The translations under genes and the position numbers were made by a program. The notes beneath the pieces were generated by a model. The model saw nothing but the letters and a program-made list of their open reading frames with translations, had not been told where the DNA came from and searched no databases. A DNA stretch of 64,000 nucleotides from Trichobilharzia szidati (lineage: Eukaryota > Platyhelminthes > Trematoda > Strigeidida > Schistosomatidae). The first letter of the stretch is position 1; every line of letters begins with the position of its first letter. The DNA lies in assembly GCA_944472155.2 (NCBI GenBank), contig OX235277.1, positions 25,678,804 to 25,742,803 on the forward strand, read 5' to 3'. Shown piece by piece: positions 8,900 through 62,716 of the stretch.

Positions 8900-9164
8900 C
8901 CATGGGTTGTAAAACTCGAGTATTTAAGCCATGCTATATGGAACAATAAACAGTAAGTAATCTTGTAAATTTGGTTTCAAATTAACGTGTGAGGGTTTAC
9001 TGAGAACTTCATTTCAAATTCTTCTTAATTTAGTTAACATTGGATTAAGGTGAACCCTGTTATAATCAGGATATATTCCAGACTGTCACAATTAGTGTTC
9101 ACTCCCCTCCCCCGAACACATCATGTACCATATTGACTTTTGTGTGCTTTCATCATTGTTCATT

Positions 9165-9830
9165 ACATGTTAGGAAAGTGTGCAATAACTTACGCCATCT
9201 CTGGCGTAAACGTAATATCCAGCCGTCAATCTAACGACGTGTGTGTTGGTTTGTAGGGATTTGGTTGGTTACAGGATTTCAACTAGGACGAAACAGCTGT
9301 CCAGTACTCCCAGGTTTTCCAATGGTTCTCTAACTAATGTCAGCTCATGATGAAATCCTGTAACGACGTGTGTACTGCTCAGCACTTCGCTGTGTCCTCC
9401 TTTATGGCTGTGAGCAAGACATGGCCATTCAAAGTGGAAGATATGAAAAGGTTGACTAGCTGTCTTTGATTAGATGTGGCTGCGTTCTACCTCCTGTTTG
9501 AGGTGGTAGAATAAGGTGATCAATAGTGAGATTGGGTATCGAATGGTAAGTGAGGGGCAAAAGTTACCAGTTGAGATGGTTAGGACATGTGTTGCGCATG
9601 CCCAGCCATCACCTTCCTCGACACCAGGCAATGTTAAGTGATGTAGGATTAGGTTGGGAAAGAGTCATCTGTCAATGAAATTCACAACAGTTAGTTTAAA
9701 CCAGCCAACCAGCCACATCGGGAGGTGTAGACTTCCAGATTGGAGTCCTCGATATGGCAAAAAGCAACAACTGCTGGAGACAATTGTTGATATGGCTCAA
9801 AATTGTTCTCAGTGGCTTTGTAATTTATAA
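9165..9830 (+). mobile_element. nLTR-2 (RTE-like) RT C-terminal fragment with nested insertion
   Basis: Degenerate plus-strand nLTR-2 copy, aligning by eye with 23040-23590 and 37930-38480: Leu-Leu-Tyr-Gly-Cys-Glu near 9395-9415, Arg-Leu-Gly-His-type block near 9580 and a Trp-Ser-Pro-Arg-Tyr-Gly block near 9740. It is interrupted by a 116-bp insertion (9245-9360) flanked by 13-bp direct repeats. Frameshifted and 5'-truncated. Confidence 0.8.
9245..9360 (-). mobile_element. 116-bp HHR-SINE mini-insertion with 13-bp target-site duplication
   Basis: Flanked by TAACGACGTGTGT at 9232-9244 and 9361-9373; uninterrupted nLTR-2 copies at 23083 and 37980 give the empty site. The first ~36 bases are the reverse complement of the HHR-SINE 3' terminus; the rest is an upstream segment in the opposite sense, carrying the 3' half of the hammerhead (GACGAAACAGCTGTCC). 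This matches a 5'-inverted, 5'-truncated retrotransposition product in minus orientation. Confidence 0.9.
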
Positions 9831-9854
9831 TATCCAACAAAATTCTTTTGACTT

Positions 9855-10290
9855 TCTATAGTTTGGTTTGTAAGGGTTAGTTTTGTTTTTACGAGTTGAT
9901 CACGGATTGATATCAGTTAGAGGGAACCATTAAAAACCGGAATTGGAGTACTGGACAGCTGTTTCATCCTGGTTTGGGAATCATCAGCGGTACGCACCCA
10001 CTGCCAGGGTTCGAACCCAGGACCTTCCGGTTACAAGGCAAGCTAGCTCGTATACCATTCAGCCACTGGAACCCGACTCCTCAATGGCCAATCCATGAAT
10101 TCTAACTTCTACCAATTCGTGATTTAGCGCGACCCCAACCAATGTCGTCGGTGGGACATCCACCCTCACACGTGTCATCTGGATGGACCTCACTGGTCAC
10201 GACTTCTCCTTACTAGAACTGCAGGAAACTCCATCCTGTAGCAAGTCTCTAGCGAGCATCAGATTAATTTTCTATAGTTTGGTTTGTAAG
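9855..10290 (-). mobile_element. HHR-SINE copy, full-length type A
   Basis: Bounded at both ends by TCTATAGTTTGGTTTGTAAG, this ~430-bp minus-strand copy gives the clearest view of unit length. The hammerhead at 9947-9996 (minus strand) has CTGATGA, GAAAC, stem III CAG/CTG and GTC with stem I GTACYG/CAGTAC. The B box GGGTTCGAACCC is at about 10008-10020. Confidence 0.88.
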
Positions 10291-10295
10291 GGTTA

Positions 10296-10415
10296 GTTAT
10301 GTAACCGGAAGGTACTGGGTTAGAACCCTAGCAGTGGGTGCGTACTGCTGATGATTCCCAAACTAGGATGGAACAGCTCTTCAGTACTCCTTGGCTGGTT
10401 TTCAGGCCAAGTAGC
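10296..10415 (+). mobile_element. HHR-SINE fragment (hammerhead part)
   Basis: Plus-strand continuation directly after the minus copy, forming an inverted pair. It keeps GTACTGCTGATGATTCCC but the GACGAAAC block has become GATGGAAC, so the catalytic GAAA is changed to GGAA. It is joined to PLE-C coding sequence near 10420. Confidence 0.75.
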
Positions 10416-10419
10416 TCCA

Positions 10420-11020
10420 CCAGAATCATCTTTCAAGATCATCTACAAAGTGAAGCTAAATGGTACAAAGGGCGTCAGGTTTCTGATTTTGTGTATGGCG
10501 AAGGCTTTGGCAATTCATCAATACAACCCTGAACTCTGTATACAGAAAAAGTTTGTCCAGTCTCTTATTCTACCGTGGTCTTAACCTCTTCACTAATCGT
10601 TCCTTGTAAATAAAATACATTTTGATTTTTTCTTTTCATTCTAATTTCACTTTTAGTTAGCTTTTGCTTTAATAATTAATTCACTATTATCACTCTCATA
10701 TGCTCCTTTTGTATATTTTCACACCCTCTTCACACTTGTTAAATTGACACTCAAATACCTTTATTCTCACTTAATAGCAATTTTAACCTTATGAAATTTC
10801 TATCTTTGTGCCGTTGAGTACCACGTAATTTTCAACTTTTAATTTTCACTTCTAAAGCCACTTTTGAGTAATTATATCAATTATGTCAACCCCTGTTACT
10901 CAATGATAGAACACTAGACACTTTTGGTATTTATAAATATGACTTTACAGCCTCTGAAGATGATTTCTTCGGTAAAGAAAATTTTCTTCGCTTAATTTAT
11001 CTTTTATTTCCTTCATCACT
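10420..11020 (+). mobile_element. PLE-C C-terminus and 3' untranslated region
   Basis: Frame 10351-10584 encodes Phe-Lys-Ile-Ile-Tyr-Lys-Val-Lys then Ala-Lys-Ala-Leu-Ala-Ile-His and Glu-Leu-Cys-Ile-Gln-Lys-Lys, the end of the GIY-YIG domain of PLE-C, terminating at Leu-Pro-Trp-Ser-stop. The AT-rich 3' sequence to about 11020 recurs in inverse orientation at 25010-25420 and in part at 40216-40740. Confidence 0.75.
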
Positions 11021-11501
11021 CAATGGGTACTTTCGGTGATTTTCAATGGTTCTCTAACTGATATCAAGCCGTGATCAACTCGTAAAATTCCATTGTTTTT
11101 CCATATTACTATTCTTTCTCCCTCACTCACACTTCTGTTTATTATCATCTCTCTCTCTCTCCTTTGAATCTCTCTGTACTCTATTCTCTTGCTTTGTGCG
11201 CTACATGGGAGAGAGAGTGGTAAGTCGAACTGTTGCACATCTGTGCAAAGTCCTACGTTGAAACCAGTCAGTCAGTCAGTCAGTGAGTCGGCCAGTGTAC
11301 AATAACACTTATAGTTCTTTGCACATTCTCGAATGACATTCTATCTAAGGTTAGAAAGGTAGATCAATTTTTTTTTGAGTATTAATCACCAAAATGATGA
11401 TTGAGACCTCATCCTAGATTGTATCAATCAGTCATGTATATTTCTGCTCTTCCACTTCCTTTTTTCTTCTAATTGTTTTTTTTTTTTCATTTATATTCAA
11501 G

Positions 11502-11594
11502 GAACAACCTGCAGCGACCACCAGTTCTCAAAGTAACCTTTTACTACTTGACAAAGAAGATTCTGTATCATTTCTGAGTGCATTAAGAGTACCA
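11502..11594 (+). CDS. SLC37A: SLC37-family antiporter, central cytoplasmic linker exon
   Basis: Acceptor TTCAAG precedes an exact 31-codon exon (93 bases, phase 0 at both ends) with donor GTAAGT at 11595. It is rich in Ser, Thr and Gln, then Leu-Leu-Leu-Leu-Asp-Lys-Glu-Asp, and ends Phe-Leu-Ser-Ala-Leu-Arg-Val-Pro. Vertebrate SLC37A1/A2 have a variable acidic linker ending Phe-Phe-Gly-Ala-Leu-Arg-Ile-Pro immediately before TM7. The exon joins in frame to 15834. The preceding N-half exon at 56022 ends in phase 1, so at least one exon with length 2 modulo 3 is missing between them; it could lie in the 38759-39254 gap. Confidence 0.87.
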
Positions 11595-11789
11595 GTAAGT
11601 TAATTATGTAATGCATCAATACATTTCTAAAAAAATAATCAGTACATGATAATTTATTTCATTTTTTTCCCTTTGGAATAATTTAACCGAAATGTTCAAC
11701 CTCTGCTGTGACATGTTGTTAGCTCCCTATGACTGTGAACGGTTCTAAGATCTCTGAAGGTTAACGTGATGTGCTTTCTAATTATTATT

Positions 11790-12575
11790 ATTATTGTTCC
11801 ATTGGGTTCCTTGTAGAACACAGGGCTTCAACTGCACGTCTCCACTTGCTTCTGTCTTGTGCTGTACTTTTCACTTGCATCCATGTTAATCCGTACTGTT
11901 TCAGTTCCTCATCACACGATCTCCTCCATGTCACCCTTGGACGTCCCACTCACCGCTTCCCTTTCGGGTTCCACTCGAGCTATGGCCTGACGCGCGATGT
12001 CACCCAGTGGCCTCCTCAGCGAGTGTCCAATCCATCTCCACTTTCTCCTGCATATTTATTGCGCGATTGGTTCTTGTTTCGTTTGTTCCCATAGTCTCTT
12101 GTCGATGATTCTTTCCGGCCATCTGATCTTCAGTATAGAGTGAAGACAGTTGTTGATAAAGGTCTGCAACAGGCTGTTGGAAATATTCTTTGTGACCCGC
12201 CAAGTTTCTGATCCGTACGTATACAAGAGCTGACTTGATGTTTGCATTGAAAATCCGAATCACTTTGTTGTTGATGCTGAGTGACGAAGATTTCCAGATT
12301 GGTTTCAGGTTGCTGAATGTGTTTCTCGCCTTCCCGATTCTCGATTTGATATTCTCGTCCGTTCCTCCTGTAGTTGAGACAATGCTCCCTAGATAAGTGA
12401 AGGGAGGAAGTAACCTCTTTCAAATCCCTCCCGTTGATGGTGATTGGCGCTGGATGTTGCTGCTGCTGTTGTTGTTGTTGTTGGTTGGTTATTTTCATAA
12501 CCTCCGTCTTGTCTATGTTCACCTGGATGGTGATTATTAGCTGTGGAAGCGAGGGGCTGGAAATTGAGACAAGAG
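11790..12575 (-). mobile_element. nLTR-1 (RTE-like) 3' part, minus strand
   Basis: Minus-strand frames give Lys-Thr-Glu-Val-Met-Lys-Ile-Thr-Asn-Gln, a Gln-rich tract from a CAA/CAG microsatellite (12463-12483), Thr-Ile-Asn-Gly-Arg-Asp-Leu-Lys, then shifted frames for the Ile-Arg-Ile-Phe-Asn and Trp-Pro-Glu-Arg blocks, ending at an AAT-type tail (11783-11800). It is head-to-head with the plus-strand copy starting at 12590. Confidence 0.82.
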
Positions 12576-12589
12576 AAAGACAAGGTTGA

Positions 12590-13545
12590 CTGCCTGTTAT
12601 CATTGATGATATTCTTAATTGTGGTGGACTGACTGGATTATGCGTCAGACTGTACATAGGGAGTGAGAAGACGGGAATACGCTGCATTGACCGATAAGAA
12701 GACTCTAGAAGATCTGGATTTCGTGCTTGGATTATTTATGTTTAATGTCACACAAACTCAAAGACTTACAGACAGGCGAAAACCAATAAACTAGCTGAAT
12801 AGGTAGGTAGTCCAGCGAAGACAGGACTCCAGGTGAACATGGAGAAGACGGAGGGAATGAAGATAACGAACCAACCAACCAAATGCAACACCATCAACGG
12901 GAGAGATTTGACACAGGTTACTTCCTTCACTTATCTGGTTAGGAAGCACGGTTTCAACCACAGGCAGGCAGTCGGAACGGATGAAGATGTCAAAACCAGC
13001 CAGGCAGTTAGAATAGGAAGGGCAAGATACGCCTTCATCAACTTGGAACCAGTTTGAAAATCTTCTGCACTCACTCAGGCAGCATTAACAAAAAGATTCG
13101 GATTTTCGAAATACATGTCCAGTCATTCAGTCAGTCAGTTTTTCTATGCGGGTCAGAAACATGGCAGGCGCGTCACGAAAAGTATTGCCAACAAGCTACT
13201 GACTTTTACCATTAGCTGCCTTCACTGGCCCCATACTGAAGATCAAATGGCCGGTTGTGGGGCCAGAAAGAATTGGTAACAAGAAACTCTGGCTGGGAAC
13301 AAACCAACAGGTGAGAGCCGATCTCTCAACAAATATGTAGGAGAAAATTGGGATGGATCGGTCATACATTGATGAGGCCCAATGTAGGTCATCGCTCGAG
13401 TGGAATCCCAATGGGATAGTGGCATGGAAGGAGATCGCGTGAGTTGAAGGAGATGAGCAATAGTAGGTCAGGACACCAAGAATCAGAAAAATGGATATGT
13501 GTTGTTGAAACCCTATGTTCCATTTGGAGTCCAAGGGAATAATAA
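12590..13545 (+). mobile_element. nLTR-1 (RTE-like) 3' part, plus strand
   Basis: Plus-strand copy starting upstream of the palm motif (block matching Gly-Gly-Leu-Thr-Gly-Leu-Cys-Val-Arg at 12622) and running through Met-Glu-Lys-Thr-Glu-Gly-Met-Lys-Ile-Thr-Asn, Asn-Gly-Arg-Asp-Leu-Thr, Phe-Thr-Tyr-Leu and Arg-Ile-Gly-Arg-Ala-Arg, to an AAT tail at 13540. Several frameshifts. It forms a head-to-head pair with 11790-12575. Confidence 0.82.
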
Positions 13546-13639
13546 TAATAACTAGCCAAATAATATCATTGATATAAGAATAAAACTTGGGCACTGTGGT
13601 AGAATGTAATTCCATTATGGGTAAATTTTTATTTTGTTA

Positions 13640-14800
13640 GAGTCTCACAGTGTTATACAGTAGTATTTACTGATGACGTTTCGAGCACAATTTATTGCTC
13701 ATAATCATATCAAGGTAATCACACGACTTCCTAAATTCATTTATATAGTTCCATTGTTTTTCACTTGATTGGATTGGTAGTATTATTCTCCATATCTCGG
13801 GTATGAGTGATGATTCATTCCTATTGCATGTGTTGGGTGTAGATTCGATGAACAAAGATTCCGTAATCAACCTCTCTCTCCACCTACCTAGATTACTTTT
13901 TAGAATTTTAACCCTCTCCCACCCTATTGTGTGGTTGTGTGTTAATGCATGCATTGCAATTGCTGAGTTTTTTTCTAAATTACTTATCTTCTCTGGGTCA
14001 ACCATTCTTACCTTAGCTGTGATCCCTGAACTTTTTTCTAAATTACTCATCTTCTCGGAGTCAACCATTCTTACCTTAGCCACTAAATTCTTATGTTCTG
14101 ACAATCTGACTACCTCCGCTCGATCTACTAGTTTGACCTATGTAGTTGACCTTACTCACAGTCATTGCAGGGTATTTTGTAAATTATATTATTTTGTCTA
14201 ATTGGGTCAACCTACAGGGTCCTTTAACCTACAGAGCTTGTCCCTGAATGAGTTTGTAGGTTTGAATGTCACTCTAATTCCTGCTTGATTAAGAATCCTA
14301 CGTAGGGTGTCAGATGTTCCCTCCTTATATTGTAAAACTGTAGATGCCTTATATTATCTCTTATTTATATTGTCATTACTAGTTTCACAATTATTTTTAT
14401 TTTGCTTTTAGCCTTTTTCAATCTTCCTAATGAATTTTATAGGATAGTTATTTAACACCAACGCCTCTTCAGTCTGCTTTATTTCATCAATTAGGTCTTT
14501 TTTTGTGCTACTTAGTGCCATTGCTCGGTTTGTTAGACACTTAACTAAGCCACGTGCCTTCACAAACAGTTAACAAGTGAGATGAATTAAAGTCTAAATA
14601 TCTATTAGAATGCGTTGGCTTTTTATAAACCCTAGTGTGTAGTTTGCCTTCTTCTATTCGTTTTATTTTACAATCTAACATGATAGCTAATTCTCCTTGT
14701 TCATTTTCCGATTCAAATGTGAATTTTATTACTTCTATGATTATAAAAACACTGGTCCTATTTCCCATCTGATTGTAATTGATTAATAACACTCATATTA
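13640..14800 (-). mobile_element. PLE-A Penelope-like element: RT end and GIY-YIG domain
   Basis: Minus strand. The 14541-14792 frame gives the RT thumb block Leu-Asp-Cys-Lys, then Val-Tyr-Lys-Lys-Pro-Thr-His-Ser-Asn-Arg-Tyr-Leu, a Penelope signature. The 13667-14104 frame gives the GIY-YIG C-terminal part: Val-Arg-Leu-Ser-Glu-His-Lys-Asn-Leu (partly out of frame), Ala-Leu-Thr-His-Asn-His-Thr-Ile-Gly-Trp, Arg-Glu-Arg-Leu-Ile-Thr-Glu-Ser-Leu-Phe and Asn-Thr-Cys-Asn-Arg. A 63-bp in-frame duplication occurs at about 13967-14092. The 3' tail (13640-13720) carries the conserved CTCGAAACGTCATCAG. Confidence 0.85.
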
Positions 14801-15560
14801 TTGCCACCAGCAAAATCAGAGGAGGATAATAATCTTAAAATTCTATTTCAATTCACATACATTAATTATAACATTCTAACAAGTTACTTATTTTGACTAT
14901 AAAAACACTCGTCTTATTTCCCATCTGATTGTATTTGAAAAACTTCATGCAATTCTTCCCATTAATAAACTTGAACAAAGCAAGAACAACAATTGTACCA
15001 GGATAATATGAGCTCATCTTTTATTATTTCGAGGATTCTTCCCCATTGGTTACAACCTGAACGATGAAAAATATGAATTACATTACATTAAAGATTTGAA
15101 CATAATTTTCCACGATCACAAAGAGTAATCGGTAGGAAGTGAAAGTAACATTAGTCCAGAATGATTTAACTAATTAAGAGATGCAAACAACTGACTATTT
15201 ATAGAATAATTCAAATGAACTGTGATCAGTATTTGACAGTTTATAAATATTTATAGAATAATTAGGCAATTAGGCTTAGAAACAAAAACAAGCTGTTGTA
15301 TATTTTTTTTGTTGTCATCAGGGCAGTGCAAAATTCACCACTATCTCTTTCTGCGTACATAGATTTGGTTTAAGTCGTCTGATTGATAACACTCATATTA
15401 TTATTTCTGAATGTACATTATCCCATATTGACTTTTATTCAAATGTCTAATCATCAATTCCACTCATGTATATAAATGAAGCGCGAAATTTGTGTGAGTA
15501 TTGCCTTGATATGATTACGAGCAGGCATAAATTGTGCTCGAAAGGTGGTCATCAGTTAAT
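14801..15560. other. AT-rich interval with short PLE-like fragments
   Basis: Contains TTGATAACACTCATATTATT twice (about 14782 and 15382), and at 15490-15560 a degraded PLE-A tail (TTGATATGATTACGAGCAGG and TGTGCTCGAAAGG). No exon is recognised. Confidence 0.5.
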
Positions 15561-15833
15561 ATTATTGTATAACACCACTGTGTATGACTTATCAAAATAA
15601 GGTCTTATCTATAAGACTGTATTTCACACTTACTTGATCATTTAATTACTACATAAAAATGGAAATGATCTACTACCACCCAATGCAGTTGATGAAACCT
15701 CACAGAGTCGAAATAATTGCCCATGTGTGTGGGTGTGTATATACCAATTGTCCTTTTCTCAATGATGTGTATAACCTTTACCAATGTTTATTACTCATTG
15801 TTTACTTGCTTGCTTACCTTCTCTACTTTTCAG

Positions 15834-16073
15834 GGTGTTATTGAATACTCATTGACCTTATTCTTTGCTAAATTAGTTTCATACACCTTTCTATTCTGGT
15901 TACCAATGTACATCCGTGATGCTGGTGGTTTTGATCCATCCGCATCAGCAGATTTATCAGCTGTTTTTGATCTCGGTGGAATAATCGGTGGTATTATCGC
16001 TGGTTATGCATCGGATACAACTGGTGCAAGTGCTATCACATGTGTTGTCCTGCTTACATTATCAATACCTACA
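15834..16073 (+). CDS. SLC37A: SLC37-family antiporter, exon for TM7-TM9 region
   Basis: SLC37 proteins are 12-TM major-facilitator transporters of the ER that exchange glucose-6-phosphate (and other sugar phosphates) for inorganic phosphate. This 80-codon exon (phase 0 to 0; acceptor TTTTCAG, donor GTAAGT) starts Gly-Val-Ile-Glu-Tyr-Ser-Leu and contains Phe-Ala-Lys-Leu-Val-Ser-Tyr-Thr-Phe-Leu-Phe-Trp-Leu-Pro, then Asp-Leu-Ser-Ala-Val-Phe-Asp-Leu-Gly-Gly-Ile-Ile-Gly-Gly-Ile, almost identical to vertebrate SLC37A1/A2 and conserved as the MFS motif region of the C-half. It ends Leu-Ser-Ile-Pro-Thr. An rDNA fragment begins only 55 bases after the donor. Confidence 0.96.
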
Positions 16074-16128
16074 GTAAGTGAAATATCTGTTATTATTATT
16101 AGTATTATTTTAACTATTCTCTTCACTT

Positions 16129-16321
16129 GCAATTATTCCCCGTGAACGAGGAATTCCTGGTAAGTGCAAGTCATACGCTTGCTCTGATTACGTCCCTGCC
16201 CTTTGTACACACCGCCCATCACTACCACCGATCGAACGATTTAGTAAAGCCGTTGGATTGGTGTCATTGCAGTGGCTTTGCCGCTCGACTGATGCCGAGA
16301 AGATGACCTAACTTGACTATT

Positions 16322-16379
<58 letters not shown>
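16129..16379 (+). rRNA. 18S rRNA 3'-end fragment (pseudogene copy)
   Basis: Contains the universally conserved 3' terminus of small-subunit rRNA: a GCAATTATTCCCC start, GAACGAGGAATTCCTGG, GATTACGTCCCTGCCCTTTG, ACACACCGCCC, TTTAGAGGAAGTAAAAGTCG, TAACAAGGTTTCCGTAGG and TGAACCTGCGGAAGGATCAT. About 250 bp of the ~1.9-kb gene is present. It sits in an SLC37 intron, isolated from other rDNA, so it is a dispersed fragment and not a functional unit. Its sense matches the SLC37 exons beside it. Confidence 0.96.
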
Positions 16380-16605
16380 CAAGATTCTCGAACATGTACC
16401 CAATTGAAGCACGGATATTGTTCTGGTGTGCTGAGACATGCCAGTGGGTTTGGTTGGCCTGACCAGTCGATCAGTACCAAAGCATAGATATTGGTTGGCA
16501 AAGACAGCAGGTTGGTAACACCGTCAATGACATTAGTCACCTGCCTAGTCGATCAGCACTAAAGCATGTGATTCCGCCGAAAGTGGCTTGGCACGGATGC
16601 TCACG
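16380..16605 (+). other. ITS1 fragment contiguous with the 18S end
   Basis: Directly follows the 18S 3' terminus with no break, as ITS1 does in the rDNA unit, and carries a diverged short internal direct repeat (AGTCGATCAGTACCAAAGCA and AGTCGATCAGCACTAAAGCA at about 16467 and 16547). Its downstream limit is set by the start of recognisable nLTR-1 sequence near 16606 and is uncertain by tens of bases. Confidence 0.8.
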
Positions 16606-16925
16606 TGCCTATAAGCTGTCATCCACTCCTCACATAGTTTGTTCCATAGCACCCTCAAAGCGACCCTCACCTTATCGTTTTCCATTCGGATTCCATCCTG
16701 GAGGTATATCTGGCGTGTAGTGTCAGTCAACGATCTCCTGAAACGTATGTCCGATGCATCTGCTTATATTTGTTGGGCAATTAGATTCTCGGTTGGTTCG
16801 ATGCCTACCAGAGTTTTTTTCTTGCTTATCCTTTCCGGTGGCCTATCTGATCTTCTGTCTCATCAAGGCAAGCGAGAGAGAGAAAGAGCTGTTGATGTGT
16901 TGTCTGTACTTGTAACGATTGCTGT
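16606..16925 (-). mobile_element. nLTR-1 RT C-terminal fragment
   Basis: Minus-strand pieces match the nLTR-1 C-terminus: a Gln-Ile-x-Arg and Thr-Asp-Thr-Thr-Arg-Gln block, Trp-Asn-Pro-Asn-Gly-like sequence and Cys-Glu-Glu-Trp-Met-Thr near 16620. It abuts the ITS1 fragment without spacer. Confidence 0.7.
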
Positions 16926-17149
16926 CTAGATAAGTGCAAGAAGTGACTTTCTATAGATTTCTCTTATTCAAATCACGGAATATACATATTCGATTATAGG
17001 GAATAATATAAAAAGACACAGTTGCAGCGAAGAAAATTTTTTCTTTTCGACGAAGTCACCATCAACTAGGCTGTACATTCGTGTATTTATAGTAATAAAT
17101 GGGTGGGAAAGTTCCAGAATAATTTCCAGTCAAGGGGCAAATTAATAAA

Positions 17150-17462
17150 ATTACAATTAGGAATTAAAATGCCATAATAAACAGGGGGACGGATAAAACT
17201 GAGAAGATTGACATATTGTCCAATTAGGGATTAGAAATGTAGAAATAACAAAATAGACAGAAAGTTTGGATAAAAAATCTAGTGGGATTATAACGAATGT
17301 TTATGCAATTAGGGATTAAATATGTAGAAATAATAAAATAACAAAATAGACAGGAAGTTCGGATATGAAAATATGGTAGTGTAAATAGGGATTAAGAAAA
17401 ACTTAAAAATAACATGAATAAACAGGAAGTTTGGATAAGAAAGGCAATGGGATGGTCACTAT
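17150..17462. repeat. Four diverged tandem repeats (66-87 bp)
   Basis: Units start with CAATTAGGGATTA (or a variant) at about 17153, 17219, 17306 and 17384. Each contains ATGTAGAAATAA-like and GACAGGAAGTTTGGATAA-like blocks. They lie immediately 3' of the PLE-C frame on the minus strand and probably belong to its 3' untranslated region. Confidence 0.75.
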
Positions 17463-18480
17463 TAAAAGAATTACCTGTTTATGATGGCCATGGCAGGGGG
17501 ACAAGGGTTGGACGTATTTCTTTTGGATACATAGAGTGGGTTTGAGCTTTTGGATGGCTAGTGCCTTGGCTATGCCCAGATGTCTTAATTTTACTCCCTT
17601 TGATAGGTTTGATCGAATCTTGTATATTATTTTGAAGGATTTTTTGAATGGCGCTGAATGTTCTGAATTGACCAGATGTTCTGTCACTGAACTATATACA
17701 CGTTTTCGTTCTATTTTTACTAACCAGACTGGCTAGTGTTCACGAGCGCGTTTTTCAAGTTGGCGCATGGTACGGCCAATGTACTCAGCTCCTCAAGAGC
17801 AAGTAAACTGGTATATGCATGTTGGAGTGGCCCAATGCGACAGCTTGTCTTTCGCGTTCTGTCTGAACAGTTTCTTGCAGAAAAACATCAGTCGTAGGCT
17901 TGTGGCGAAGTATGTTTTCCTCAGAGATTCGCAGAGGCGTTTCCGAAGGATTTCTGCTCCAATATCACCTTTGAATTCTAGATTAAGCAGAGGCATCTTC
18001 TTCAGGACGGATTAGACTTGTTCAGAAGTCTTCTTTGATTTTAGATTCTTGTCTATGAACCTAGGCGAAAAGCCGTTTTCCATCAAGGTTCCTCAGAGAT
18101 TACGCAGTTCTTCGTCAATCACTTCCTGGCTGCATATCTTCCGAATCCTCGAGGAAAGAGCGTATATCAGGTTCCTCTTTCTGCTTAGGGGCACGAAGCT
18201 TTGAAAATTGATGAATTGTCCATTCCATGTAGGCTTTTTGTATATGGACCTTTTCAGAGAGTTGTCGGCGTTTCTTGTGAGATGGACGTCAAGGAAGTGG
18301 AACATTCCGTTGGATTCAGCTTGAAGAGTAAAATCGATGTTTTGATGGGCATTGTTGAAGGTTTAAAAGTAAGCTTTTAAGGTCCAGATCCTCATCAAAA
18401 ATGTTGAAAGTATCATCAATGTATCTGTTCTTGTAAAGATTGAAGGTCAGTGATAGTCGACGACAAGAAGTTGTTTTCGA
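17463..18480 (-). mobile_element. PLE-C Penelope-like element: RT with YIDD and GIY-YIG endonuclease
   Basis: Minus strand, in order: an Arg-Tyr-Ile-Asp-Asp-Thr-Phe palm motif (18409-18431), the catalytic aspartates being intact; Phe-His-Phe-Leu-Asp-Val-His-Leu-Thr-Arg and Ile-Tyr-Lys-Lys-Pro-Thr-Trp-Asn-Gly-Gln (18093-18305); Ser-Leu-Arg-Lys-Thr-Tyr-Phe-Ala; Leu-Ser-His-Trp-Ala-Thr-Pro-Thr-Cys-Ile-Tyr-Gln-Phe-Thr-Cys-Ser-Cys (17793-17860), leading into the GIY-YIG core; then Phe-Lys-Ile-Ile-Tyr-Lys-Ile and Ala-Lys-Ala-Leu-Ala-Ile (17490-17690). Frameshifts separate the blocks, so the copy is probably dead. It is the longest PLE protein remnant here. Penelope elements use the GIY-YIG domain to nick the target and prime reverse transcription. 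Confidence 0.88.
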
Positions 18481-18599
18481 GCTGGCCATAAAATCAGTTG
18501 ATGGTGATTAATTACCACTAAGTGATTCACAACTGTGAAAGCTCAGCACACTTGTTGAAGTGAAGACAGAAAGAAGACATAACTGGTGCTGATGCTGCT

Positions 18600-18775
18600 T
18601 ACACTTTCCTGTTGATCTTCCTCATTGTCGTAGACTAGTTCAAAGACACTGGACACGATATGAACTTCGCAGAAGATGTATGTCTAGCGTCGAAGAAACT
18701 CGGATATCTACAGGTCAGAATCAACCAGTTGATAGAAGAGATGATGAAATGTCTACTCATATCACTGTGTCGTCG
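18600..18775 (+). mobile_element. nLTR-1 palm-motif fragment
   Basis: Frame 18660-18896 begins Met-Asn-Phe-Ala-Glu-Asp-Val-Cys-Leu-Ala-Ser-Lys-Lys-Leu, then Val-Arg-Ile-Asn-Gln-Leu-Ile-Glu-Glu. It matches the nLTR-1 palm Phe-Ala-Asp-Asp region, with the first catalytic Asp changed to Glu. Confidence 0.65.
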
Positions 18776-18789
18776 TAATTTAAGTCTAT

Positions 18790-18890
18790 TCTTCTTATCA
18801 ATGCACATAACCATGAACTCGCTGGGAGTCGAACCTAAGTTGAGGGGCCAACCTATTAACCATTCGTCCACCTGGTTGGATTTCAATAAC
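18790..18890 (-). repeat. tRNA-like SINE fragment
   Basis: On the minus strand an A-box-like TGGACGAATGG is followed by a B-box-like GGTTCGACTCC at tRNA-like spacing. No full cloverleaf was verified. It is treated as a SINE head, not a tRNA gene. Confidence 0.5.
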
Positions 18891-19099
18891 CAGTAAATCT
18901 TAACTTTGATCATTTCCCGATATAGCGAAAATATTCATTCAGACATCTGGAAAAAAAAATGAGCAAAGAATATCCTTTTCAATAATTTCCTCTTCTGGCT
19001 CTACAATTATATATATATATATATGTTTATCTATATAGAATATTGTAGAATAGTAGTCAATAACAATATTGGTGTTTTTCTAAATAATATCGGTTTGTT

Positions 19100-19530
19100 A
19101 AGTTAGATCACCATGGAATTACAGTTCATTAACGATGCTCAAATTATAATAATAATAAAGATATAATAGCGAATAGAATATCAACTAAAATTAAGGAAAT
19201 TTCTACAAAAAATGCGGTAAAAAGAGCATTCCGTGCTGCTGAATTACACTGTATCTACTAAAACACTTACCCCTATTTCTGTGTTTGGGAGTAAAAGACA
19301 AACTGCCTAATTTCGCCTCTTACATGTATATCTACCAATTTAACTGCTCCTGTGGAGCATACAAAGAACGCCAAAGAAGTCCTACAAACCTGGTAATCAA
19401 ATCAATTTACAGTTAAAAAACACATGGGCATTGATCGAACTTATCAATCAATTATTAAACTAGGTCATATGACACGAAAAGGTCAAATATCATGTCAAAT
19501 GATCAATAAACAATACAAGTGTAATATAAT
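19100..19530 (+). mobile_element. PLE-C-type fragment
   Basis: Broken plus-strand frames give an Ala-Ala-Glu-Leu-His-Cys-Ile-Tyr block and, in another frame, a Met-Tyr-Ile-Tyr-Gln-Phe-Asn-Cys-Ser-Cys-Gly-Ala block at about 19323-19355. This is the entry to the GIY-YIG domain seen at 17850 and 39880. Confidence 0.7.
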
Positions 19531-19894
19531 CAATTATAAAGATAATCGATAGAATATCAATGTATCAATCATAACACAGTGACAGCCATCTCAATACAGA
19601 CCAATGGGAGAACTCCTAAAAATTCACTTAACACACACCATGAAGTTAGCTCTGAAGATGTTGTCTAGTTTGGACAATAAAAGCCATCCAGCTGAGAGAA
19701 AAAACCAAGAAGACAAGAATTAGTCGCCTTTATATGTATACTCTTTTGATTGATATTCACACTTTGTATTGATTGAAGTAGTAATTGATTGACCATCAGC
19801 AACGAACCGACAAAAAGGCAGAATTTCTATTCATATCATTAATTAATCGAAGTCGAAGGAAGATACTCGGATTATATTAATGGAAACTAATATT

Positions 19895-20062
19895 TTTTAT
19901 TTTACTCCTTTACGTTCCCGGCGGAACATAGGGCAGCTTCAAGCTAGAAGCTTCAAGTTTCCGTAGCAGTGGTGTTTATTTTTACGAGATGGGGTCGCTA
20001 GTCAGCCTCATGCCCAACCTTCCCTCTTTACCAGTCTTATTACTGGCTTAGCGAGGTAAAGT
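19895..20062 (-). mobile_element. SINE-P copy
   Basis: Minus-strand repeat sharing GAACATAGGGCAGCTTCAAG and CATGCCCAACCTT with 33779-34015, with related plus-strand copies at 45840-46035 and 56310-56510. Better copies have a tRNA-like head, but this one lacks it. It lies just upstream of the SLC37 micro-exon. Confidence 0.7.
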
Positions 20063-20164
20063 AGGAGTAGTGTGTGTTGACTTTACTAAAAATATCTTTT
20101 TCCTGATTGTTTATCATTTTAATTTATTTTTTTGAACTCTTCATTTTTTTCTTTTTACGCACAG

Positions 20165-20213
20165 CTATACTTATACTCAATTATTGGTTTTTATTCTTTG
20201 GCAACTTGCATAG
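20165..20213 (+). CDS. SLC37A: SLC37-family antiporter, 49-nt micro-exon
   Basis: A good acceptor (TTTTTACGCACAG) and donor (GTAAGTG at 20214) bound 49 bases encoding Leu-Tyr-Leu-Tyr-Ser-Ile-Ile-Gly-Phe-Tyr-Ser-Leu-Ala-Thr-Cys-Ile plus one base. It enters in phase 0, as the exon ending at 16073 requires, and exits in phase 1, as the exon starting at 33559 requires (the split codon becomes Gly). The join gives Ile-Pro-Thr then Leu-Tyr-Leu-Tyr before Gly-Leu-Leu-Ile-Pro, which fills, within one residue, the family segment around Met-Phe-Leu-Tyr-Asn-Tyr-Ile-Gly. Too short for ORF-based finding; identified by phase, splice sites and alignment. Confidence 0.88.
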
Positions 20214-20264
20214 GTAAGTGAAAAAAACAAAACCCATCTTGAAATGTTTCAAGAGTTTGATTCG

Positions 20265-20735
20265 TTTTTAGGAGTTTGACAACCACCGATACTGAACAGT
20301 TGTTTCGTCCAAGTCTGTTCGGGAGTCTTCAGCGGTACTCGCTCACAAACCCATCAGGAATGAAACGTAGGACCTTCAAATTGTGAAACAGCTGTTCACT
20401 ACTCCATGTTAGCTTTCAGTGGTTATCTAACTGGCATTAAACAGTGAGAGGTCGTGAACAATGGGTTCCACCAGGTCGTGTGTGAGAATAAATACTCGCC
20501 GATGACATCTGCTTGTAGTCGCGCTGAGTTAGAGTTCATGGGTCATTGAATTCGGGGCAGAAAGTGATTGAATGACCAACTTGTTTTGACCTCGTAACCC
20601 TGAAGGCCCTGGGTTCGATGCATGGTGGGTTCTCTCGTCCATACTGATGTGGCGTCCTAAACATGGACGAAACAACTGTTTAGTATTCCCTGCTGGTTTA
20701 TGTTGTTTCTCTAACTGACACTAATCCATTTTTGG
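20265..20735 (+). mobile_element. Diverged HHR-SINE with two hammerhead segments in inverted arrangement
   Basis: Starts with an inverted 3' part (minus-strand hammerhead 20289-20340 with CTGAAGA, GGACGAAAC and stem III AAC/TGTT), followed by a plus-strand body. The B-box-like GGGTTCGATGC is near 20610. A second hammerhead segment at 20641-20690 keeps stem II GTCC/GGAC and GAAAC but has lost the CTGANGA core. This subfamily is visibly older than the copies at 28.9-29.7 kb. Confidence 0.75.
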
Positions 20736-20899
20736 AAATGTATTTTGCTCCCGCTTGTCTTTCACATACACACACCCGCTCTCTCTGAGTATCTCTCTCT
20801 TTCATCGTGTTTATATCCCCAGTACTCCTCTTTATTTGTAAAATCATCGATCTGGCATAGAGTGACATTCTCATAAAATGGCATTTTGACATTATTATG

Positions 20900-22018
20900 G
20901 TTTCCTTTAATTCCTAGAGGAACATAGGGCTTGAGCCGTGCGTCTCCACTGCGCTCAGTTCTCTGCTAGAGTTTCCACCTGGCTCCAAGTCTGTCCACAC
21001 GTTTTCATCTCCTCTTCACATGACCTCCTCCAAGTCACCCTTGCACTGACGACCAACTCGTTGCTTCCCTTTCGGGTTCCACTCGAGCAATGGCTTGTCT
21101 AGTGATGTCACTTGATGGTTTCCTCAGAGTATGGCCAGCCAATGCATATCCATTTCTTCCTGCCTATTTGTTTCACGATCGGTTCCTGGTTGGTTCGCTC
21201 ATTACCAGAGATCCCTGTTGCTGATCTTTTCTGACCGGCCACCTGATCTTGAATAGTATTGAGCGAAGACAACTGTTAATGAAGGTCTATATTTTGTTTG
21301 AGGTGCTCTTTATGACGCGCTGGCCAAGTCTCCGTATAGAAGCATTGACTTCACATTGGAGTTGAAAATCCGGGTCTTATTTTTGATGCTGAATGCTGTT
21401 GACCTCCACACAGACTTGACAGTAGTGAAAGCTTGTCTTGCTTTCCCGATTCTTGCTTTGATATCCTCGTCAGTTCCGCCTGTAGTTGAAACGATGCTTC
21501 CCATGTAGGTAGGTAGGTAAAGGAGGTTGTTTCTTTCAGGTTCCTTCCATTTATGCTGATCGTTGTCTGTTGTTGTTGTTCTTGTCCAGGAATCTTCATT
21601 ACCTCTGTTTTCTCTATGTTGACCTGAAGTCCTATCTTCTCTGGATGCTTCTTCTGCCAACTTGTTGCTTTTCGCTTGCATATCTTACAGTTTGTGGGAA
21701 ATCAGACATATATCATCGGTGAAGTCCAGATCCTCCAAGTGTTTTTGTGTGAGTGCATTTTATGCCTGTTTCCTCATTGCCCGCTATCTGTCGCATTATC
21801 CAGTCTACTGTAATCAAAAAAATCATTGGAGATAGTGGGCGGCCAGCTTGTCTTACTCCCGTCTTCACTTCGAAGGATTCCGTGAGTTATCCGTTGTGGA
21901 TTACTTGGCATGCAGCATTGTCGTACAGCTGTTGGATGAGATGTATAATTGTCTGTGGCACCCCATAGTAGCGAAGTAGTTGCCAAAGCACCTCTCGATC
22001 GACGCTGTCGAATGGGGA
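20900..22018 (-). mobile_element. nLTR-1 (RTE-like) RT, from palm to 3' end
   Basis: The fullest nLTR-1 copy. On the minus strand: Phe-Asp-Ser-Val-Asp-Arg-Glu-like start (21985-22015), Gly-Val-Pro-Gln-Thr-Ile-Ile-His, Cys-Gln-Val-Ile-His-Asn-Gly, Thr-Gly-Val-Arg-Gln, then palm Phe-Thr-Asp-Asp-Ile-Cys-Leu near 21700-21725. Next come Ala-Lys-Ser-Asn-Lys-Leu-Ala-Glu-Glu-Ala, Ile-Asn-Gly-Arg-Asn-Leu, Ser-Phe-Thr-Tyr-Leu, Thr-Thr-Gly-Gly-Thr-Asp-Glu-Asp and Arg-Ile-Gly-Lys-Ala-Arg-Gln-Ala-Phe. Both catalytic Asp survive, but several frameshifts split it. It ends near 20900 in 3' sequence shared with 58310 and 11790. Confidence 0.87.
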
Positions 22019-22074
22019 TATAAATATTCTAGTGCTTATCTGTAGTATAGTTGGACGTAAATTGATGCATAAAT

Positions 22075-22215
22075 TTGATTAACTGCTTTTTTGATATACT
22101 AACTCACATGGACATGATTATGAATGGCAATAAATTGTGCTCGAAACGTCATCAGTAAACATTACTGTATAACACTGTAAGACTTCATGAAAACAAAATT
22201 TACCCATAATGGAAG
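22075..22215 (+). mobile_element. PLE-A 3' tail
   Basis: Carries GCAATAAATTGTGCTCGAAA and CGTCATCAGTAAACATTACT followed by the CACTGTAAGACTT and TTTACCCATAATGG blocks seen in reverse at 13620-13700. Confidence 0.75.
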
Positions 22216-22299
22216 TAACTTCAAAACCTCATCGATTGATTTCCCCTCCTCCTACTTCCAACATCATTCCTACAGACCACATTATACCATGTAACTCGA

Positions 22300-23795: not shown

Positions 23796-23889
23796 GATGT
23801 GATATCCAGCTGATCATCGATCAGAGGACATGTACTGGGCTGCTGTTGTCTCCGTCCGCCTCTATGGTTGTGAGAGAAAGTCTCCATTG

Positions 23890-24770: not shown

Positions 24771-24774
24771 TATT

Positions 24775-24945
24775 TTTACGAGTTTAACCATGGATTAATA
24801 TCAGTTAGAGGGAACTATTGAAAAACAGCACTGGAGTACTGGATAGCTGTTTCACATTCTAGTCTCCTGGGTCTCTTCGGTAGTACCACTCACTGGGGTT
24901 CGAACCCAGCACCTTCCGGTTACAAGACAAGCTCATATACCATCG
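24775..24945 (-). mobile_element. HHR-SINE, 3' part
   Basis: Minus-strand copy with the B box (GGGTTCGAACCC around 24896-24910) and a degenerate hammerhead (24837-24890): CCGAAGAGACCC at the core and GTGAAACAGCT downstream. The tail ends at the usual GTTTAACCATGGATTA-type sequence. Confidence 0.8.
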
Positions 24946-25420: not shown

Positions 25421-25429
25421 CAGGATAAT

Positions 25430-27005: not shown

Positions 27006-27009
27006 ATGA

Positions 27010-48900: not shown

Positions 48901-49169
48901 ATAATAATAACAATAATAATAATAATCACAATACCACATACATTTGGATAGTGCTGAGTTGGAGGTCGAATATCAACAGATTCAGGGTCTAAAACAGAAA
49001 GAAAAAACCAAACAGGGAAAGTTAAGGCACATAATGAATCGATTTTCTAAAGGTCGTGTGGAAGGAAGTACAGCTACATCAATTGTCTTTCTAAACGAAA
49101 CTAGAAAATCGTCATGTAAACAATTTTACCAGAATCCTAAGGCAACATTTGTGGTGAGAGCTGCCTGCT

Positions 49170-54412: not shown

Positions 54413-54755
54413 TCAAACTGAACTGTTTGTATGAAAATGATCTAAGCAAAGTTTCCCCTTAAGGAGTAATATTCCTAATACCCTGATAATATACACCTCT
54501 TAATGTGATTTATTAGCCATAAAGCTTAAATTCAACTTAATCATATACTCACACATAGGAAATAATCCTATTTCATCTGTTGAAAAAATTTAAGGTCAAG
54601 TATTACAATTTCAAGGTGAATTGATTATTATTTCACTCTTATTTAACACCTTATAATTCCTTTGTCATTTAATTGAACGACAATATTATCTACATAAACA
54701 CAAGCACAGGAACAAACAAACACCCAGAAGATGCGTGTGTGCGTTGACTAACTGG
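54413..54755. other. AT-rich interval, no gene recognised
   Basis: No repeat family or exon identified. Possibly unique intronic sequence of the SLC37 gene. Confidence 0.5.
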
Positions 54756-56021: not shown

Positions 56022-56188
56022 ATGGTACAAGAAATAAGTAAATCGGTATACTCAATAAGCCGACTATTAATCCAGGGACAACAAATGACCAACCCCAAGC
56101 GGTTTCAACAAATACACCAGCAATTAAAGAGCCTAAAATATTTCCAATACTTGCATGCGCTGTCCATACACCCATAAAAAATCCTCGT
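56022..56188 (-). CDS. SLC37A: SLC37-family antiporter, exon for TM5-TM6
   Basis: On the minus strand, acceptor CAATTTTTAG precedes 167 bases. The first base completes Lys, followed by Arg-Gly-Phe-Phe-Met-Gly-Val-Trp-Thr-Ala-His-Ala-Ser-Ile-Gly-Asn-Ile-Leu-Gly-Ser, then Leu-Ile-Ala-Gly and Trp-Gly-Trp-Ser-Phe-Val-Val-Pro-Gly, ending Leu-Phe-Leu-Val-Pro plus one base before GTAAG. The Arg-Gly-x-x-Met-Gly-x-Trp and Ser-x-Gly-Asn-Ile-Leu-Gly-Ser motifs are hallmarks of SLC37. Its strand is opposite to the C-half exons at 11.5-35.4 kb. Exit phase 1 does not fit the linker exon directly. Confidence 0.97.
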
Positions 56189-60168: not shown

Positions 60169-60245
60169 TTATTTTTACCAAACCAATTCCCCATACAAGC
60201 GACAACAGCTGGCCAACCAGTCGCTTGTACAATTCCTCCAAGACC
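60169..60245 (-). CDS. SLC37A: SLC37-family antiporter, exon for TM4
   Basis: The minus-strand acceptor CTTGATTTAG precedes 77 bases encoding Gly-Leu-Gly-Gly-Ile-Val-Gln-Ala-Thr-Gly-Trp-Pro-Ala-Val-Val, then Cys-Met-Gly-Asn-Trp-Phe-Gly-Lys-Asn plus two bases, with a GTAAGC donor. The Gln-x-Thr-Gly-Trp-Pro and Gly-Asn-Trp-Phe-Gly-Lys motifs are strongly conserved in SLC37 and related organophosphate:phosphate antiporters. It joins in frame to 56188 (forming Asn-Lys-Arg-Gly) and to 62581 upstream. Confidence 0.97.
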
Positions 60246-60764
60246 CTAAATCAAGTTGACAAAATGTGTGTTAATGTATGATGCATTAGTCTTAATTTTG
60301 TTTTACAAAAAAGAAAAAGATAAGAAGACTATCTGATCCATTACAAATTATCATGTTGCGCTTACTGGTCATTCATTATATTATCAAAATTCCCTATTGT
60401 TCAAGTTTCAAATCTAATCACTAAGTTAACAGGCTTGTCATATCAATGAATTTCAAGTCATATTTAACAATATAGCATATATTCCTCATCAGTGATGGTC
60501 TGTCATAATCTGAGTAGGACTGCACTGACGTCTGTCAATACAGCAGTGAGTAGGGCTACTGAGGGGCGGGGCGGGTGTCGTGAGATTCAGCTATCCCCTG
60601 TTGATATACCGGATGAGAGAGGTAGACGGTTTTTTTTTCTGTCAACTGTTTTTCATCCCTTAATACGGAACATTAAATTGAGTAACAGAAAAGAATATGA
60701 ATAGCTTTTTAACAAAAATAAACCAGCTAAATCTCTCTAAATGTCAATAGTACACACACACACA
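60246..60764. other. SLC37 intron with a GC-rich patch
   Basis: AT-rich, except for a GC-rich stretch at 60555-60595 (GGGGCGGGGCGGGTG). An open frame at 60492-60704 shows no recognisable domain. Confidence 0.45.
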
Positions 60765-62125
60765 CATATTAACCCCCTGAAGGCTCCAATCCAGGAGTTT
60801 TTATGCGATTTAGCCACTGGGACACAGAATCCAAGAACTCATCAATTGTAACTTCCTCAGTTATACACGCGATAAACAGCGCAATGGCCAGCTAGTGTCA
60901 TCAACGACTATCCGGTCCTCACATCCAACTCGGTGGATGGTATATGAGGTTAACTTGTAAACCTGGAGGTCCTGGGCTGGCCGCTTTCCTGGTGGGGAAA
61001 TGGGTGTGTGTAGTGTTGAGGAGTCTTAAAATAAGGACTCCTTGGTTCCCAGTGGTTCTCTGACTGAAGTCAGTTTATGCTGACACTTGAAAATTATTAT
61101 TATTATTGTTACATAACATAATATTTAAAAATTCATATTTACACATTTAGGAAATATTCCGCTTAGTTCCTCACCCTTCAACGGCTCTACACTTATACAC
61201 ATACATACACTTTGTTTTGTATCAAAAGTACACCGGAATTGTAAAACAAGATACCAAAGTCAAACGACAAGTCGTGGTTGACCATGACAAAGAAAGAAGC
61301 AACACGAATTCGGCATTTGTTCAGATGAATTCCGATTACCTCTGTCGTGTGTAGAAGTGGTACTCGTGGAGTGTACTAAAGGTTGGGTCAAATACGGTGA
61401 CTAACTTGAGAGTACTGGTGTAACAAGAGAAGACAAGGGCCAAGCAACAGATCGTTTACTAAGGAAAATCAACACATATTTATAGATTTCAATGTACATT
61501 ATTGTAGATTATTGTTAGTAGAAAATACAGTCTTTTGATTGGTTGTTTGTCACAGAAATTTAACCTTGCATCTCTTTGTGGCTGTGTCAGATCATCTATA
61601 TGCTAACTGTATCCGCTTACGCAAAGCCTTTGTTCTCATTTTCTCACCACCAATATTGGGGACATAAACACTGACGTCAGTTACTGTCTACCAACTTTGG
61701 TTAGCAGCCAGCTCTCACCACACTGGGACAGCTTTTTCGTCCTAGTTTGAGAACTTTCAGAGGTACGCACCCACCGGGATTTGTGGATAGGCAGGCCATT
61801 GAATTAGCGGGTCGTAGTGTCCTAATGGTCTATGAGCTGTCCTTGTAACCAGAAAATCCAGTGTTCGAATCCTGGCGGTGGGTGCGTGCTACTGAAGATT
61901 TTCAAACTTGGCCGAGACAGTCATACAGTACTCTGTGTAGGTTTTCCAATGGTTCTCTAACCGATGTCAGTTCATAGTGAAATCTTGTAACCAACCAAAT
62001 CCACGCAAAAACCAACATTTGAATACAGTGACTAACGTTTGTAAAAGCTTTTATAATATCGAATTTATGTCCTGTATTGACGGGATGAGTTAGCAGTATT
62101 GAACTACCTGTCACTTTATTCAGTC
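60765..62125. repeat. Right arm of the large inverted duplication (E'-D'-C'-B'-A')
   Basis: E' 60765-61075 (diverged hammerhead SINE, GGAGTCTTAAAATAAGGACT), D' 61080-61205, C' 61205-61414, a solo LTR 61419-61722, B' HHR-SINE about 61727-61990, A' 62020-62125. Compare 47180-48890. Divergence is considerable, so the duplication is old, or the A-E unit is itself a dispersed composite repeat. Confidence 0.72.
61419..61722 (+). mobile_element. Solo-LTR-like element with 4-bp target-site duplication
   Basis: 304 bp, starting TGTAACAAGAGAAGACAAGG and ending AGCTCTCACCACA, flanked by CTGG (61415-61418 and 61723-61726). The matching position in the left arm of the inverted duplication (about 47615-47635) is an empty site with a single CCAG. 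TGT...ACA termini and a short duplication are typical of LTR retrotransposons after LTR-LTR recombination. Related copy at 49170-49499. Confidence 0.85.
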
Positions 62126-62320
62126 TTATGCCACACTTCATGAAGGACACAAAGGAAGACAGAAGAGAAAAAATTTCAGAAGAACGATAATAACCAGGAA
62201 TGTGAGGGGGAAAGCCTAATAGCATGCAAAACCGATGGAATTTTCTTCGGATATGGCAGATCACAGAGGGTGATTGCATCGTCGCCTTTGAGAACGATTT
62301 TGAGTCATCTTAATATGTAA
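62120..62320 (-). mobile_element. nLTR-2 3'-end fragment
   Basis: Minus-strand 3' coding end and untranslated region matching 37060-37170 (GAGAACGATTTTGAGTCAT on the plus strand at 62289), strongly diverged. Confidence 0.6.
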
Positions 62321-62580
62321 TATAAAGGGGAAATTAGATGCGATATTGTACTACGTGCTGAAAACTTTATACTCTATCATCAAACGTACTGTTTGGAATG
62401 AAGCCGTTATTATTATCACTATTATTATCAGTAGTAGTAGTAGTAGTATTAACGTTCATGAATTTAACAAAAATAGTAATAACAGTTTGCAGAGACCCAC
62501 AAATGAACATCTGATTTTCAAAATGAATAATTCCATAGATTTAAAATGTTATTAAGATAATAATACAGTTAAACGCTTAC

Positions 62581-62716
62581 TTGAACAATCGCATAATAAG
62601 CGAAAGAGTGAATATTAAAGAAATATCCAAGTCCAAAAGCAATTGTTGTTAAACCCGATAAAAATGTACCAATACACAAGTATATTCTCAGGTCAATTTT
62701 ATCTGCAATATGTCCA
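62581..62716 (-). CDS. SLC37A: SLC37-family antiporter, exon for TM2-TM3
   Basis: The minus-strand acceptor TTTTACAATAG precedes 136 bases. One base completes a codon (probably Phe), then Gly-His-Ile-Ala-Asp-Lys-Ile-Asp-Leu-Arg, Cys-Ile-Gly-Thr-Phe-Leu-Ser-Gly-Leu and Phe-Gly-Leu-Gly-Tyr-Phe-Phe-Asn-Ile-His-Ser. It ends Ala-Ile-Val-Gln in phase 0 at a GTAAGC donor. Gly-x-x-Ala-Asp-Lys/Arg is the MFS loop 2-3 motif; Gly-Leu-Gly-Tyr-Phe-x-Asn-Ile-His is specific to SLC37. The first ~100 residues (TM1 and lumenal loop) must lie beyond 64000 if the gene continues as expected. Confidence 0.97.

What the first reader, a model, noticed from the sequence alone, without database searches (positions are those of the whole stretch)
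8900..62716. SLC37 transporter gene is split into two halves on opposite strands; flipping the contig between the two N runs restores it exactly
Seen: N-half exons (TM2 to TM6) are on the minus strand at 62716-62581, 60245-60169 and 56188-56022. C-half exons (linker to TM12) are on the plus strand at 11502, 15834, 20165, 33559 and 35350. All five C-half exons lie between the N runs 8400-8899 and 38759-39254. Mapping p to 47658-p puts them on the minus strand at about 36.1, 31.7, 27.5, 14.0 and 12.3 kb, in the correct order after the N-half. Internal phases agree at every other junction; only the N-half/linker junction fails, and that is where the second gap would sit, so the missing exon may be in it. 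Inference: misoriented contig in scaffolding. The alternative is a true inversion disrupting the gene.
Basis: partly seen in the sequence, partly recalled or inferred. Interest (0 to 1): 0.92.

Follow-up and report, generated by a model that had tools for sequence, protein, structure and literature searches.

The report
Sugar-phosphate transporter gene broken by misassembly
One 30-kb piece of a bird-schistosome genome assembly is very probably laid in backwards between two gaps, which cuts an ordinary sugar-phosphate transporter gene in two; it is a fixable assembly error rather than new biology.

Summary
Nine exons of one SLC37 (sugar-phosphate exchanger) gene lie in the window, each with AG/GT splice sites and in compatible phases. 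Five are on the plus strand between the N runs. The minus half matches one Trichobilharzia regenti protein at 136/142 residues, the plus half at 205/211, without overlap, so this is one gene, not two paralogues. Reversing 8900-38758 in place makes all nine exons collinear; it is the only edit that flips one block and moves none. A public 172-residue Trichobilharzia szidati protein (P0143) is encoded by this window's minus half and ends in a false exon at 54689-54646. So the window matches the T. szidati assembly, and the broken layout goes with a truncated public gene model. Best explanation: a contig misoriented in scaffolding (0.93). A true inversion is not excluded: no reads, Hi-C data or transcripts could be examined. 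"Exactly" overstates the repair: about 106 N-terminal, 16 linker and 43 C-terminal residues were not found in the window.

The parts
62581..62716 (-). Exon N1 (T. regenti residues about 107-152)
   Evidence: AG acceptor, GTAAGC donor, phase 2 in, 0 out; tblastn E 1.4e-23
60169..60245 (-). Exon N2
   Evidence: AG/GTAAGC, phase 0 in, 2 out; E 5.7e-13
56022..56188 (-). Exon N3
   Evidence: AG/GTAAGT, phase 2 in, 1 out; E 1.5e-29
48942..48988 (-).
   Evidence: AG/GTATGT, phase 1 in, 0 out; E 7.6e-6 in the full-length search, score 79 against 27 for the next place
38759..39254 (.). N run, 496 bases; lies between the two halves after the flip
11502..11594 (+). Exon C1 (end of linker); minus 36156-36064 after the flip
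   Evidence: AG/GTAAGT, phase 0/0; E 5.1e-12
15834..16073 (+). Exon C2; minus 31824-31585 after the flip
   Evidence: AG/GTAAGT, phase 0/0; E 2.2e-43
20165..20213 (+). Exon C3 (49 nt); minus 27493-27445 after the flip
   Evidence: AG/GTAAGT, phase 0 in, 1 out; E 1.7e-5, 17/17 residues, the last codon crossing the donor
33559..33711 (+). Exon C4; minus 14099-13947 after the flip
   Evidence: AG/GTAAGT, phase 1/1; E 4.7e-26
35350..35447 (+). Exon C5; minus 12308-12211 after the flip
   Evidence: AG/GTAAGT, phase 1 in, 0 out; E 1.2e-14
8900..38758 (.). 29,859-base block inferred to be in reverse orientation
   Evidence: bounded by N runs; in-place reversal is the only edit that flips one block, moves none and makes the nine exons collinear
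8400..8899 (.). N run, 500 bases
54646..54689 (-). Last exon of public T. szidati model P0143, (Y)NIVVQLNDKGIIRC, followed by a stop; judged false
   Evidence: exact match to the model's C-terminus; does not resemble P0002 there
62717..62808 (-). Sequence before exon N1, judged intron, read as coding by public model P0143 (MYINSLF...)
   Evidence: exact match to P0143; does not resemble P0002 there

Best explanation
The window is part of the T. szidati assembly. It holds most of one SLC37-type sugar-phosphate exchanger gene that in the animal runs in one direction. During scaffolding the 30-kb block 8900-38758, bounded by two N runs, was placed in reverse. This put the second half of the gene on the other strand, and the gene prediction then gave a truncated protein from the first half. 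Shown: exons, strands, phases, a single orthologue, N runs in both intervals where a switch must lie, a truncated public model. Inferred: that the reversal happened in the assembly and not in the animal, and that the left N run is the other switch point, because the left block carries no exon of this gene.
For: Both halves match the same T. regenti protein (136/142 and 205/211; best of the 15 relatives compared for each half). They tile it without overlap: about residues 107-249, then 266-476. All nine exons have AG/GT borders, and N4 ending in phase 0 joins C1 starting in phase 0. The only two N runs lie one in each interval where a breakpoint must fall; two random points do this in 7.6% of trials. 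Of 48 orders and orientations of the three blocks, 12 make the nine exons collinear, and the in-place flip of the middle block is the only one that changes one block without moving any. Relatives carry both halves in single gene models on single contigs: S. guineensis 18.5 Mb, H. americana 35.2 Mb, S. japonicum 22.1 Mb (strands not shown; the H. americana and S. japonicum models each lack some internal residues). The T. szidati model P0143 is encoded by this window and leaves the gene after N3. Hi-C scaffolders are known to misorient short contigs: 4.3% orientation error for 3D-DNA in a benchmark on human and worm contigs from short reads (PMC7672694, abstract and passages).
Against: No reads, Hi-C or transcripts across the gaps were seen. 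The C-terminal exon, which the flip would place on the minus strand left of 12.2 kb or in the gap, was not found in 8399-1. It was not found on the plus strand of 39255-64000 either, where the present layout would want it: the one better-scoring match, 52344-52400 (score 44 of 97, next place 25), overlaps a reading frame that looks to me like a retrotransposon's and has no acceptor in front. No mobile element could be followed across either gap in either layout: the fragment cut at 39255 has no recognised partner at either end of the middle block. The 7.6% figure is not small by itself. How this assembly was scaffolded is not known to me.
Confidence: 0.93

Rival explanations
1. A true inversion in T. 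szidati, or in the sequenced worms, with breakpoints in repeats that could not be assembled. It leaves gaps at both ends and disrupts the gene.
For: The window is rich in repeats, with inverted pairs such as 11785-12527 against 53158-52409 at 91%. T. regenti and Schistosoma have the protein in one piece, so an inversion would be recent and possible in principle.
Against: None of the 16 inverted pairs of 85% or more and 100 bases or more listed has one arm in each interval where a breakpoint must fall (1-11501 and 35448-48941); recombination at the 91% pair would leave C1 behind and carry N4 along. The gaps themselves could hide such repeats. The coding exons show no stop codon or frame break, as expected for a gene in use.
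Confidence: 0.05
2. Two SLC37 paralogues lie close together: the minus-strand half belongs to one gene and the plus-strand half to another, and each has lost or hidden its remaining exons.
For: Some trematodes list more than one SLC37-like protein, e.g. Calicophoron daubneyi P0013, P0069 and P0094.
Against: Both halves have the same best relative at 96-97%, while those three C. daubneyi proteins lie at 51-67%. No residue of P0002 is encoded twice in the window. One Trichobilharzia protein is named among the 120 listed of 3766 matches (many rows carry no name or a cut one).
Confidence: 0.01
3. The layout is real and the two half-transcripts are joined by trans-splicing, as for mod(mdg4) exons on opposite strands in Drosophila.
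For: Donor and acceptor are intact and in phase at the N4/C1 junction. The Drosophila precedent exists (PMC4528330, passages), and flatworms have spliced-leader trans-splicing (PMC12582326, passages).
Against: Nothing requires it. Both intervals where a switch must lie hold an N run, and relatives carry both halves in single models on single contigs.
Confidence: 0.01

Closest known systems
Sugar phosphate exchanger 3 (SLC37 family) of Trichobilharzia regenti (P0002, RepID A0AA85IZS2 in the listing)
   Same: 136/142 and 205/211 residues of the two halves
   Different: the T. regenti protein is in one piece (519 aa); here about residues 1-106, 16 linker residues and the last 43 were not found in the window
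SLC37A2, glucose-6-phosphate exchanger (solved structures 9ucm and others)
   Same: N-half E 1.8e-43 to chain positions 108-230, C-half E 2e-65 to 284-474
   Different: only part of the protein is encoded in the window, on two strands as laid
Contig orientation errors in Hi-C scaffolding (HiC-Hiker paper, PMC7672694; abstract and passages seen)
   Same: a short block reversed between its neighbours, disturbing gene prediction
   Different: the method used to scaffold this assembly was not established here
mod(mdg4) of Drosophila: trans-spliced exons on opposite strands (PMC4528330; passages seen)
   Same: exons of one product on both strands
   Different: there transcripts support it; here no transcript was examined and the switch points can be explained by N runs

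Membership tests
SLC37 sugar-phosphate exchanger | Major facilitator superfamily domain | tested here: inconclusive
   Halves scanned separately: the N-half (N1-N3) matches MFS_1 at 65.9 bits (cut-off 33.4); the C-half matches MFS_1 at 29.1 bits and ABC2_membrane_3 at 25.3 bits, both below their cut-offs
SLC37 sugar-phosphate exchanger | Closest solved relatives are SLC37 proteins along both halves | tested here: met
   SLC37A2 is the best match for both halves
SLC37 sugar-phosphate exchanger | Orthologous to named trematode SLC37 proteins | tested here: met
   P0002 is best of the 15 relatives compared for each half; by identity, no tree was built
SLC37 sugar-phosphate exchanger | Twelve membrane helices and phosphate-linked exchange | not tested
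   helices were not predicted; about 165 of 519 residues were not found in the window; transport needs an assay
Misoriented contig | Switch points coincide with N runs | tested here: met
   in the sense that each permitted interval (1-11501 and 35448-48941) holds one of the two N runs
Misoriented contig | In-place reversal restores exon order, strand and phase | tested here: met
   a 16-residue piece between the halves is still missing
Misoriented contig | Reads or contact data support the reversed orientation | not testable with these tools
   no reads held; the genome search did not answer at any of 12 attempts
Trans-spliced gene with exons on both strands | Chimeric mRNA joining the two halves while the genome keeps the present layout | not testable with these tools
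   no T. szidati reads or transcripts could be examined

The most novel reading that the evidence does not exclude
The present layout is true in T. szidati: a recent inversion split the SLC37 gene, and the complete protein is still made by trans-splicing the two half-transcripts, which keep intact, in-phase splice sites at the N4/C1 junction.
Probability: 0.01. Interest if true: 0.8.

Novelty: not a real feature. Interest (0 to 1): 0.15.

Why it matters
As biology it is ordinary. As a data problem it matters locally: a public T. szidati protein (172 aa) is a truncated piece with two ends that look false, so a survey could wrongly conclude that this species has lost or shortened its SLC37 transporter, or call a lineage-specific inversion. 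The same check (gene halves on opposite strands with N runs at the switch points) could find further misoriented blocks in this assembly.

Tried and rejected
Second SLC37 copy in the window: the P0002 search gave the nine exons and nothing else below E 0.5. C-terminal exon at 52344-52400 plus (score 44 against 25 for the next place): rejected, since the overlapping frame reads to me like retrotransposon coding sequence (recognised from memory; Pfam gave no match to ORF 52330-53028) and no AG acceptor stands before it. Mini exon at 56-33 minus (EYAS*EHP): rejected, in-frame stop and no continuation. Following a mobile element across the gaps: the element cut at 39255 looks like a Penelope-type fragment (name recalled, not tested) with three other copies in the window, but no partner was recognised at 8900 or 38758; the ends 8180-8399, 8900-9190 and 38480-38758 gave no other match in the window, so this test is uninformative. 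Half-length public models of the C-half: among 21 proteins with E up to 1e-60 none is named Trichobilharzia (many have no name); a close fragment may be hidden in the P0002 cluster of four members, so this proves nothing. Papers: searches listed no paper whose title or abstract start is about the T. szidati genome assembly; from these lists I looked at passages of PMC13155389 and PMC12582326, neither of which names T. szidati. One search (Schistosoma, SLC37) listed three papers, by title none about schistosome SLC37. PMC7672694 and PMC4528330 came from searches and were seen as passages.

Full report
What was claimed. I checked the exons, the gaps, whether both halves are one gene, and whether other readings fit.

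The exons. The window has two N runs, 8400-8899 and 38759-39254. The T. regenti protein P0002 (519 aa, named Sugar phosphate exchanger 3) is the best of 3766 proteins matched, of which 120 were listed; only the 7990 candidates sharing most words were scored. A search of the window with P0002 showed a ninth exon on the minus strand at 48988-48942, (Y)PESVDIRPPTQHYPN. Its score is 79 of a possible 86, and the next best place in the window scores 27. It accepts the phase left by N3 and ends in phase 0, which is the phase in which C1 starts.

One gene. The minus-strand exons give 142 residues, 136 identical to P0002; the plus-strand exons give 211, 205 identical. P0002 is the best of the 15 relatives compared for each half; the next are Heterobilharzia (126/142) for the first half and Schistosoma (178/211) for the second. 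The two halves cover about residues 107-249 and 266-476 of P0002 and do not overlap. Two paralogues would be expected to overlap and to have different best relatives. Solved SLC37A2 structures are the best solved relatives of both halves by sequence. MFS_1 is matched above its cut-off by the N-half and below it by the C-half.

The layout. If one reversal is to restore the gene, its breakpoints must lie left of 11502 and between 35447 and 48942. The only two N runs fall one in each interval; two random points do so in 7.6% of trials. Among 48 arrangements of the three blocks, 12 give collinear exons, and the only one that flips a single block and moves none is the reversal of the middle one. 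The C-half exons then lie on the minus strand at 36156-36064, 31824-31585, 27493-27445, 14099-13947 and 12308-12211. The left block carries no exon of this gene, so its own place and orientation are not tested by this gene.

A public gene model shows the damage. A search with the N-half found P0143, a 172-residue protein labelled Trichobilharzia szidati on a contig of 72,348,017 bases. It is encoded here: 62808-62581, then N2, N3, then 54689-54646 with a stop. Of its 172 residues, 171 were found as exact stretches, and the remaining tyrosine is the codon split across the last junction. Its first 30 residues come from the sequence before N1 and its last 14 from an ORF that does not resemble P0002 there. 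So the window matches the T. szidati assembly, and a truncated protein has been deposited from it. That P0143 was predicted on this same layout is inferred from its use of N1-N3 and the false exon between N3 and the gap.

What is missing. About 106 N-terminal residues, 16 linker residues and the last 43 residues of P0002 have no credible match in the window. The N-terminal exons would lie beyond 64000 in either layout. The 16-residue piece could be in the gap between the halves. The C-terminal exon was found neither where the flip would put it within the window (8399-1, minus) nor where the present layout would (39255-64000, plus). An apparent match at 52344-52400 was rejected as an out-of-frame coincidence with what looks like a mobile element, without a splice acceptor; Pfam gave no match to that ORF. 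This absence is slightly easier under the flip, which leaves about 12 kb for the last intron within the window, against about 28 kb in the present layout; it does not decide.

Real inversion or assembly error. A real inversion is possible but has no positive support. The longest similar inverted pair that links the middle and right blocks (11785-12527 with 53158-52409, 91%) has its arms in places that would not produce this arrangement, and none of the 16 inverted pairs listed at 85% or more has one arm in each permitted interval; repeats hidden in the gaps are not excluded. Relatives carry both halves in single gene models on single long contigs (strands were not shown, and the H. americana and S. 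japonicum models lack some internal residues). The row for T. regenti shows no contig. Orientation errors for short contigs are a known weakness of Hi-C scaffolding, with 4.3% for 3D-DNA in one benchmark (PMC7672694, abstract and passages). Trans-splicing of exons on opposite strands is known in Drosophila mod(mdg4) (PMC4528330, passages); nothing here calls for it.

Limits. No reads, contact maps or transcripts were available. The genome search did not answer at 12 attempts, so a second SLC37 locus in this genome is not excluded. The scaffolding method of this assembly was not established; the lists of searches showed no paper on it.

Noticed in passing
16100-16379 (+), continuing to about 16600: The 3' end of an 18S rRNA gene, ending at GGATCATTA, lies inside the intron between exons C2 and C3 (205 bits for 16100-16379; 110 bits for 16210-16371). 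The sequence that follows looks like ITS1 with short repeats (from memory, not tested).
   Followed up: partly
6138-6256 (+): Full-length match to U5 spliceosomal RNA (77.5 bits, gathering score 40).
   Followed up: partly
7560-7608 (+), 9948-9993 (-), 48802-48847 (+), 53964-54008 (-): Four type I hammerhead ribozymes above the gathering score, probably in schistosome repeat elements (from memory).
   Followed up: no
22949-23030 (-) and 59297-59369 (+): Marginal Rfam matches to mir-3492 (44.8 bits, gathering 44) and tRNA (30.3 bits, gathering 29); ARAGORN found no tRNA.
   Followed up: no
28955-29237 and 29675-29393: Nearly identical inverted repeat arms, 98.6% over 283 bases, 155 bases apart, inside the block judged reversed.
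   Followed up: no
3308-3586 (-): ORF of 93 codons with a weak PHD-finger-like match (E 0.0012, 19.3 bits, cut-off 24); host gene or mobile element not decided.
   Followed up: no
39255-39491 (+): Fragment of a Penelope-like element (name recalled) cut at the gap edge; three related copies start or end at 36303, 31069 (minus) and 41985.
   Followed up: yes
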